Shown piece by piece: positions 22,168 through 23,859 of a stretch of DNA of 41,375 nucleotides. Positions within the stretch are counted from its first letter, which is position 1, and the number at the start of each line of letters is the position of its first letter. Position numbers and translations under genes: made by a program. This stretch comes from an uncultured bacterium (lineage in GTDB: Bacteria > Patescibacteriota > Minisyncoccia > Phycocordibacterales > GWA1-40-21). The stretch covers positions 1 to 41,375 of the forward strand of contig CAIKXY010000008.1 in assembly GCA_903831595.1 (NCBI GenBank). Reading direction: 5' to 3'. The notes beneath the pieces were generated by a model. It had not been told where the DNA came from. It saw only the letters and a list, made by a program, of their open reading frames with translations, and made no database searches.

Positions 22168-22197
22168 AAAATGGCCTCCGCTAGAGGAAACCATTTT
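22168..22197 (-). terminator. Terminator after the 22210 gene
   Basis: Stem AAAATGG/CCATTTT with an inner CCTC/GAGG pairing, followed on the minus strand by TTTTTGTTTC. Confidence 0.6.
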
Positions 22198-22209
22198 ATA
22201 TTTAATTAT

Positions 22210-23049
22210 TTATTTTCTATTTTTACTATCGATAATTTTTTTAGTAATAAAATTATCGATATCTTCAGAATTATAATGTAAATAACCAACTGGACCGGGC
22301 AAACTATGTATGCTATCACGAATTGATATAAGCACTTTCATAATTTTTTTTACATCTTTATCATCCTTACAAACATCAAACCATTTATCAAGAATTTGTA
22401 ATGAATTTATCGGTGGCATTAATGTTAAGCCTTCTTTAAATGCATCAACGTATAAATCAAAAAAAACTGAAAAATCTGATGGTGTTGAACATAAACTATA
22501 CCATTTTTTATATGCTCCATCTAAAATTTCACATTTCTTATCATCAAGTTTTTCTAAAATATACTGTTCCGAATCATCCAATTGTTCTGTGCTATTTAGA
22601 TGCTCATAATTTTTATTAATTTCGTCAATAATTCTTTTAATTTCTGTTATTGAATTAATTGATAAAATTTCATTTTTACACTTAATTAAACTTTCATTAT
22701 ATCTTTCCACAAAATTAATAAATTTTTCGATATTTTTTCTATTATTTTCTATATTGTCTCTTTTCTTATTGTAATCATATTTTGTGTTATCATCCAAGGC
22801 TTTGTCATGTAAAACATCTTTTGCACTCATTTTATTTACATTAAATATTATTTCTTCAAGTGAACGATAATTGTTCATATTTATAGCATCATCTATTGCT
22901 TCTTTAAAAGCGGACATTGCTTCTTTTTTTACAAAACCTTCCACTTTTCCTTTTTTATTTTTGACATTGACAAATTCACCTCTTTTTTCAATAGGCAAAT
23001 CAGAAACCTTTTCAAAGTCTGGATTTGCTGGATTAAATTTTTCCTTCAT
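22210..23049 (-). CDS. Helical cytoplasmic protein of unknown function behind a poly-G promoter
   Basis: I do not recognise this 279-residue protein. It has no signal peptide or membrane segment; it is highly charged and mostly helical, with likely coiled-coil stretches (about residues 85-125 and 130-160). An N-terminal segment (VKNKKGKVEGFVKKEA) may be a small beta unit. There is no clear domain or catalytic motif. What stands out is its promoter: a -35/-10 pair separated by a spacer holding ten consecutive G on the coding strand, the layout of phase-variable promoters. It stands alone between the rplY terminator and its own. Confidence 0.6.
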   Translation of the reverse strand: MKEKFNPANPDFEKVSDLPIEKRGEFVNVKNKKGKVEGFVKKEAMSAFKEAIDDAINMNNYRSLEEIIFNVNKMSAKDVLHDKALDDNTKYDYNKKRDNIENNRKNIEKFINFVERYNESLIKCKNEILSINSITEIKRIIDEINKNYEHLNSTEQLDDSEQYILEKLDDKKCEILDGAYKKWYSLCSTPSDFSVFFDLYVDAFKEGLTLMPPINSLQILDKWFDVCKDDKDVKKIMKVLISIRDSIHSLPGPVGYLHYNSEDIDNFITKKIIDSKNRK

Positions 23050-23083
23050 TTTTTATATATTAATTAATAAATCTAATACTAAT

Positions 23084-23113
23084 ATTTTACCCCCCCCCCA
23101 GAAAATATGTCAA
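23084..23113 (-). promoter_or_regulatory. Promoter with G10 tract in the spacer (putative phase-variable)
   Basis: On the minus strand TTGACA (23108-23113), an 18-nt spacer made of eight mixed bases and ten G (23090-23099), then TAAAAT (23084-23089). The ATG at 23049 would lie about 28 nt behind transcription start. Loss of one G would give the 17-nt optimum; gain would weaken it. Confidence 0.6.
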
Positions 23114-23118
23114 TGTAA

Positions 23119-23159
23119 AATTAAAGGCGGGTTTTGCTTCGCAAAACCCGCCTTTAATT
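23119..23159 (-). terminator. Terminator after rplY
   Basis: Perfect 19-bp stem with loop TTC directly behind the rplY stop; a T run follows on the minus strand and leads straight into the -35 of the poly-G promoter. Confidence 0.9.
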
Positions 23160-23160
23160 A

Positions 23161-23859
23161 TTATTTTCCTGCCTTCGCGTCTTTCTTCTCATCTTTCTTC
23201 GGAGCGGCATCTGCTGCTGGAGCTTCAGCACCTTCCTCACCTTCTTTAGCTTCTTTACCTTTCTTTGCAACTTCGATTGTTGAAAGATCAACTGGAGCTA
23301 CTTCTACAACTTCTTCTTTTGGTTCATATACTGAGGCAACAACATCATCTGCTTTAACTTTCAAAGTAACTCCTTCCGGTAACTTAATACCAGATGCTGT
23401 GACAACACTATCAAATGTCGCAAGACTTGAAATATCAACTTCGAGTTTGTGTGGCAAATCTTTTGGTAAAGCTTCAATTTTAATTTCGTGCATAACTTTT
23501 ACCAAAATACCTCCAAGATCCTTTACGGCTGGAGCTACTCCAATAAATTCAAGTGGAATAGAAATTTCAAGTTTCTTTCCTTTTTCAATAGCATAAAAGT
23601 CTGCGTGTCTTGGCTTGTCCGTGACAGGGTCCAAATCTACTTCGTGAATAAGCACGTCAACATCAATTCCCTGTCCATCAAGGTGCAAAATTGTTGACTC
23701 CCCAGCTTCTTTTAATGTCTTTTCGAAAATTGCGAATGGAAGTTTGATTGGAGTTGAGGCTTCTTTTTTACCATAAAAAACAGCTGGTATTTGCCCTGCT
23801 TTTCTTATTTCTCCCAAACTTTCCTTAACATCTCTTTTTTCAACTTTTAATGTAATCAT
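23161..23859 (-). CDS. rplY: 50S ribosomal protein L25 (CTC form)
   Basis: Binds 5S rRNA. 232 residues: N-terminal L25 domain (GEIRKAGQIPAVFYGKK, residues about 15-31, and VDLDPVTDKPRHADFYAI) and the C-terminal TL5/CTC domain (EFIGVAPAVKDLGGILV, LPHKLEVDISSL). A low-complexity tail rich in Ala, Glu and Lys covers about the last 40 residues. It has an unusually long predicted leader (about 130 nt) for this window. Confidence 0.93.
   Translation of the reverse strand: MITLKVEKRDVKESLGEIRKAGQIPAVFYGKKEASTPIKLPFAIFEKTLKEAGESTILHLDGQGIDVDVLIHEVDLDPVTDKPRHADFYAIEKGKKLEISIPLEFIGVAPAVKDLGGILVKVMHEIKIEALPKDLPHKLEVDISSLATFDSVVTASGIKLPEGVTLKVKADDVVASVYEPKEEVVEVAPVDLSTIEVAKKGKEAKEGEEGAEAPAADAAPKKDEKKDAKAGK

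What the first reader, a model, noticed from the sequence alone, without database searches (positions are those of the whole stretch)
23084..23113. Ten-G tract inside a promoter spacer: candidate phase-variable switch
Seen: TTGACA, 18 nt of which ten are consecutive G, then TAAAAT, 28 nt before an unknown gene's leader ends. A G10 run is exceptional in such AT-rich DNA. Known: in Neisseria, poly-G/C tracts between -35 and -10 (for example porA) vary in length by slipped-strand pairing and turn expression up or down. Inference: the 279-residue protein may be switched in this way, with 17 nt (G9) as the strongest state.
Basis: partly seen in the sequence, partly recalled or inferred. Interest (0 to 1): 0.75.

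Follow-up and report, generated by a model that had tools for sequence, protein, structure and literature searches.

The report
Likely slippage-switched poly-G gene promoter
A run of ten Gs sits between the two contact points of a gene's promoter in a tiny uncultured Patescibacteria-type bacterium, and because the same design recurs across its order in front of surface, orphan and hypermutation genes, it is probably a random on/off dial driven by DNA slippage, although no length change has yet been observed at this site.

Summary
In detail: on the minus strand TTGACA - TATTTTCT - G10 - TAAAAT (23113-23084), 34 nt before the ATG of a 279-aa orphan gene. G10 is far beyond chance in this genome. 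It is not a one-off. The same promoter and leader occur four times in the genome with different G-tracts (G10, G7, two interrupted), and recur in congeners with G8-G10. Across the order, G-tract-spacer promoters outnumber reversed controls 40 to 5 (first scan, G7TAAAAT: 34 to 2) and precede pilin-like, signal-peptide, orphan and retroelement reverse-transcriptase genes. The four tracts of 8 or more Gs in this genome all lie at phase-variation-type sites: this promoter, two diversity-generating retroelements (DGRs) and one large surface-protein gene. No MutS gene was found in this genome or its family members tested. Best reading: a transcriptional phase-variation switch working like neisserial fetA/porA. 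Length change and expression effect were not testable here. The claim that G9 (17 nt) is strongest is unsupported. Off-target but more novel: in the order, 20 of 21 DGR Avd genes divergent from their reverse transcriptase start with a slippage-prone repeat (poly-C or CT; CA and GA elsewhere in the phylum), usually out of frame with the upstream ATG.

The parts
23108..23113 (-). -35 hexamer TTGACA
   Evidence: identical in two other copies in the genome, TTGACT in the fourth
23100..23107 (-). conserved spacer head TATTTTCT
   Evidence: identical in all four own-genome copies and in G003:C58
23090..23099 (-). G10 homopolymer, proposed slippage switch
23084..23089 (-). -10 hexamer TAAAAT directly abutting the tract
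23050..23083 (-). conserved AT-rich leader (TTTATTAATTAAT...) shared with the other copies; the 12-mer TTTATTAATTAA occurs only here in the window
22210..23049 (-). 279-aa orphan ORF driven by the promoter; no family match above cut-off; low-confidence single-sequence model is almost all helical
22168..22197 (-). terminator-like hairpin closing the one-gene unit
23119..23159 (-). 19-bp perfect hairpin ending the upstream rplY (L25) gene; probably insulates the promoter
23161..23859 (-). rplY (bL25) gene; in several relatives it is followed directly by the peptidoglycan-hydrolase-like gene, without the 279-aa unit

Best explanation
This is a transcriptional phase-variation promoter. RNA polymerase contacts TTGACA and TAAAAT; the G10 tract fills the spacer right up to the -10. 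Replication slippage adds or removes Gs, changing the spacer by one base at a time (G8 = 16, G9 = 17, G10 = 18 nt) and with it promoter strength, so that cells of one clone express the 279-aa protein at different levels. SHOWN: the tract, its promoter context, its recurrence with other tract lengths in paralogous and order-wide promoters, the failure to find MutS. INFERRED: actual length change in the population, effect on transcription, and which length is strongest (16-17 nt likelier than 18).
For: Four promoter copies in this genome share TTGACA/TTGACT-TATTTTCT and the leader but differ in tract: G10 (18-nt spacer), G7C (16), GGGGGAAG (16), GTTGGGGC (16). Congeners and family members carry it with G8, G9, G10. 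GGGGGGGTAAAAT: 34 matches in 26 of 397 genomes of the order versus 2 for the reversed control. TTG-N(11-17)-G7-TANNNT: 40 matches in 28 of 148 genomes versus 5 control, with varied -10 hexamers, G7-G12 and spacers 15-21. In the set 23 of 33 placed tracts have a TTG-type -35 at 13-20 nt versus about 14% expected. Downstream genes include pilin-like, signal-peptide, hydrophilic orphan and DGR reverse-transcriptase genes. All four tracts of 8 or more Gs in this genome are at switch-type sites. MutS_V was not found in the own genome or 7 other family genomes, but was found in another family of the order and in 11 of 14 controls. Precedents: poly-C in the fetA spacer, and porA (PMC5320596); homopolymers of 8 or more predominantly variable in N. 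meningitidis reads (PMC5084427).
Against: No reads or same-species genomes, so no length variation was seen at this tract. Two of the four own copies have interrupted tracts that would slip little. In one ortholog pair (G106/G023) G9 versus AAG7 keep the same 17-nt spacer, i.e. substitution rather than length change. The 279-aa product has no recognisable surface or secretion feature.
Confidence: 0.72

Rival explanations
1. The G-rich spacer is a fixed recognition or structural element of a lineage-specific promoter (for a regulator or a particular RNA polymerase holoenzyme); long pure runs are by-products and expression is not switched.
For: G-richness is kept in own copies whose run is interrupted (GGGGGAAG, GTTGGGGC), all with 16-nt spacers; a 5' leader is conserved too, suggesting a small regulon.
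Against: Order-wide the -35, spacer head and -10 all vary while the pure run of G7-G12 stays; in DGRs the tract unit itself changes (C, CT, CA, GA) at the same site, which a protein-binding site would not do.
Confidence: 0.2
2. Former switch: the tract was hypermutable in the ancestor, but here it is a relic driving a constitutive orphan gene inserted after rplY.
For: Interrupted paralog tracts look like locked promoters; the full-length gene is absent from 97 relatives and the unit is a local insertion.
Against: The window tract is the longest pure run in the genome (tied) and uninterrupted, so slippage should continue, more so if MutS is truly absent.
Confidence: 0.06
3. Chance or assembly artefact (for instance poly-G read ends).
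For: The genome is a draft in 15 contigs, and homopolymer lengths in assemblies can be off by one.
Against: Flanks on both sides are conserved in independent loci and genomes; enrichment over reversed controls.
Confidence: 0.02

Closest known systems
Neisseria fetA (frpB) and porA promoters with poly-C/poly-G spacer tracts (Carson 2000 and van der Ende 1995, as cited in PMC5320596)
   Same: Homopolymeric G/C run between -35 and -10, length in the hypermutable range, near-consensus hexamers
   Different: Unrelated phylum; tract abuts the -10; no length variation or expression data yet; product is an orphan, probably helical protein, not a known outer-membrane porin or receptor
Campylobacter and Neisseria intragenic poly-G/C contingency genes (PMC8355987, PMC5320596)
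   Same: The own-genome G8 in a 1510-codon surface-type open frame and the poly-C at the Avd start are frame-type tracts of this sort
   Different: Here one class of tract is used for promoters, coding starts and DGR modules in a genome under 1 Mb with no MutS found
Diversity-generating retroelements of Patescibacteria (DGR clade 2, PMC8144416)
   Same: RT plus bAvd plus TR/VR-like stretches are present in this genome
   Different: A slippage repeat between the divergent avd and RT is not mentioned in that paper's main text nor in any paper found

Membership tests
Spacer-tract phase-variable promoter (fetA/porA type) | G/C homopolymer between recognisable -35 and -10 hexamers | tested here: met
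   TTGACA - 18 nt including G10 - TAAAAT
Spacer-tract phase-variable promoter (fetA/porA type) | Tract at or above the length at which homopolymers are predominantly variable (8 or more in N. meningitidis, PMC5084427) | tested here: met
   G10
Spacer-tract phase-variable promoter (fetA/porA type) | Tract length differs between copies or strains with otherwise conserved flanks | tested here: inconclusive
   Paralogous and congeneric copies range G7-G10, but same-species strains are not held; one ortholog pair keeps spacer length
Spacer-tract phase-variable promoter (fetA/porA type) | Mixed lengths within a population | not testable with these tools
   no reads available
Spacer-tract phase-variable promoter (fetA/porA type) | Expression depends on tract length | not testable with these tools
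   needs reporter or RNA data
Spacer-tract phase-variable promoter (fetA/porA type) | Controls a surface-exposed or variable product | tested here: inconclusive
   Window product: no family, no clear export feature; other members of the class do precede pilin-like and signal-peptide proteins

The most novel reading that the evidence does not exclude
Patescibacteria with minimal genomes run a lineage-wide phase-variation system in which slippage-prone repeats (G/C runs, CT, CA, GA) switch not only surface and orphan genes through promoter spacers but also the diversity-generating retroelement itself: the repeat at the start of avd (and in some genomes in the RT promoter) toggles targeted hypermutation on and off.
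Probability: 0.6. Interest if true: 0.87.

Novelty: new variant of a known kind. Interest (0 to 1): 0.72.

Why it matters
No paper found in the searched library describes phase variation in Patescibacteria (Candidate Phyla Radiation). A genome-encoded switch in front of orphan, pilin-like and DGR genes would give these hard-to-culture, probably host-dependent bacteria a way to vary their host-facing proteins, and it makes testable, from existing metagenome reads, whether their hypermutation machinery is kept mostly off and stochastically released.

Tried and rejected
Exact search of the own genome with the -35 placed 4 nt from the tract found nothing because the gap was wrong. Viral contigs: the promoter core gave no match; the wider pattern gave a phage family with an invariant G7 in several contigs and other unrelated hits; no viral relative of the 279-aa protein; distant RTs only. 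A scan of GTDB contigs for the promoter gave Patescibacteria plus scattered other phyla, probably partly chance. Structure and fold search of the 279-aa protein: mean pLDDT 66, no match with E below 0.001. A common N-terminal motif (K[FY]xP..E..KAEDM..EQK) in several products was tested; it also occurs in one own-genome gene without a G-tract promoter, so it is not diagnostic. My first quick reading that the second C10 avd is in frame was wrong; the script shows it out of frame with its ATG. Artefact and chance were considered and rejected on conservation and reversed controls.

Full report
OBSERVATION. The minus strand of the window reads TTGACA TATTTTCT GGGGGGGGGG TAAAAT at 23113-23084, then 34 nt of AT-rich leader and the ATG of a 279-aa ORF at 23049. 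It is the top promoter-like site of the region. The window holds no other run of 8 or more G or C. The genome (726 kb, 15 contigs) holds four such runs: G10 here, G10 at C10:37320, G9 at C10:50124, G8 at C2:65192. Exact G-run counts derived are 38, 4, 1, 1, 2 for G6 to G10, so the long runs exceed the geometric decline by orders of magnitude.

LOCAL ANATOMY. Upstream, rplY (bL25) ends in a 19-bp perfect hairpin (23119-23159); downstream, the 279-aa ORF is followed by a terminator-like hairpin (22168-22197). In several relatives, e.g. G004, G001 and G007, rplY is followed directly by the 457-aa hydrolase-like gene, so promoter, ORF and terminator form a one-gene unit that I saw only in this genome. 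The protein has no full-length relative in 97 other genomes of the order, in phages or in viral contigs. It matches no Pfam, NCBIfam or PHROG family above cut-off. A single-sequence model is almost all helical, low confidence, without a significant fold match.

A PROMOTER FAMILY. A weak protein hit on contig C5 led to a second copy of the promoter: TTGACATATTTTCTGGGGGGGCTACAAT, with the ATG 64 nt downstream of the -35 start. Pattern and profile searches found four copies in the genome, all with the same leader and the ATG 64-66 nt downstream of the -35 start: C8 (window) G10, spacer 18; C5:10134 G7C, spacer 16; C5:113 GGGGGAAG, spacer 16; C2:108945 GTTGGGGC, spacer 16. Related promoters occur in congeneric G003 (four: G9, G10, G9, G9) and G001 (G8), in same-family G009 (G8), and in G026 of another family (G10).

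ORDER-WIDE CLASS. GGGGGGGTAAAAT has 34 matches in 26 of 397 genomes of the order versus 2 for the reversed control. A freer pattern, TTG-N(11-17)-G7-TANNNT, has 40 matches in 28 of 148 genomes versus 5 control; -10s include TAGAAT, TATACT, TAATAT, TAAAAT and TATAAT, tracts run from G7 to G12 and spacers from 15 to 21. So the constant feature is the run, not a fixed sequence around it. Downstream genes include type IV pilin-like proteins (FTLIELLVV), signal-peptide proteins, short hydrophilic orphans and DGR reverse transcriptases (classes assigned by eye). An ortholog pair in one genus (G106/G023) has identical flanks with G9 versus AAG7 and the same 17-nt spacer, consistent with selection on spacing.

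OTHER TRACTS IN THE SAME GENOME. C2:65192 G8 lies in frame within a 1510-codon open frame with an N-terminal hydrophobic segment; the other two frames stop almost at once. C10:37320 and C10:50124 lie between a bAvd gene (PF22296) and a divergent reverse transcriptase. By inspection of the translations, each module has a TR-like stretch matching the end of a nearby target ORF, i.e. both look like diversity-generating retroelements. On the avd strand the tract encodes PPP just before the first helix. In the assembled sequence the upstream ATG is out of frame with avd in both (C10 where 9 or 12 is needed; C9 where 10 is needed; the second also has a TTG downstream of the tract).

DGR REPEATS BEYOND THIS GENOME. 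In loci drawn from a PF22296 search of 197 genomes of the order, plus some loci fetched for their tracts, 20 of 21 avd genes divergent from an adjacent RT carry a simple repeat at this exact place: C8-C12 or (CT)9-15. Of 19 bAvd-like genes with no RT in the fetched stretch, 16 have none. In a phylum sample 11 of 16 divergent pairs have one, including (CA)14, (TC)9 and (GA)10; one of the 11 is this genome's own copy. Of 25 repeat-bearing avds, 24 have an ATG within 75 nt upstream that reads into the repeat; it is in frame in 4 and out of frame in 20. Two congeneric, closely similar avds carry (CT)12 and (CT)10 with conserved flanks. Changing unit with constant position is the mark of selection for instability rather than for a binding site (inference). 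In G011 and G008 the same tract (G12) also abuts TAAAAT in front of the RT, i.e. it is a promoter tract of the window's type on one strand and a coding tract on the other. Caveats: loci were found by a motif script (GGW end of Avd; RT motifs), are not independent of phylogeny, and include some chosen because they had tracts.

MECHANISM. Shown: sequence, recurrence, tract differences among copies, failure to find MutS_V in the own genome and 7 further family members (found in another family of the order and in 11 of 14 control genomes; draft genomes can miss a gene). Inferred: slippage changes the spacer and so transcription, as for fetA and porA (PMC5320596); homopolymers of 8 or more are predominantly variable in meningococcal reads (PMC5084427). 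Not shown: any length change here, any expression effect.

NOVELTY. It works like a fetA/porA spacer switch; membership in that kind rests on two tested and met features, two inconclusive and two untestable ones. I found no paper on phase variation in Patescibacteria or on repeats in DGR avd genes, but subscription journals and preprints are mostly not in that library.

Noticed in passing
G000 C10:37320-37329 and C10:50124-50132 (L012 4321-4330, 17125-17133); L167, L168, L192-L222, L256-L300: Simple repeats (poly-C, CT, CA, GA) at the start of DGR avd genes divergent from RT: 20 of 21 in the order sample, 11 of 16 in the phylum sample; usually out of frame with the upstream ATG. Candidate on/off switch of targeted hypermutation.
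   Followed up: partly
G000 C3:11498-11831 (L203): A third avd, 95% identical in DNA to the C10:50 kb copy over 362 nt; the contig ends inside its C/G tract, as if the assembly broke there.
   Followed up: partly
G000 C2:65192-65199 (L013): G8 in the early part of a 1510-codon surface-protein-like open frame; a one-base slip would truncate it at once.
   Followed up: partly
window 22168-23113 versus L144, L145, L147: The orphan gene with promoter and terminator is a lineage-specific insertion between rplY and a peptidoglycan-hydrolase-like gene.
   Followed up: partly
L065 2631-3194, L019, L073, L133, L137, L245: Short N-terminal motif (YxP..E...AED.MT.EQK) shared by otherwise unrelated hydrophilic orphan proteins, several under G-tract promoters; could be a sorting signal.
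   Followed up: partly
window 22960-22976 and 23104-23120: 17-nt imperfect inverted repeat between the -35 region and the start of the 279-aa coding region; possibly chance.
   Followed up: no
L100 (Dethiobacter MAG contig JAGXSR010000119.1): TTGACATATTTTCT-G9-TAAAAT, identical to the window core except for tract length, in a MAG labelled as another phylum; mis-binned contig or coincidence.
   Followed up: no
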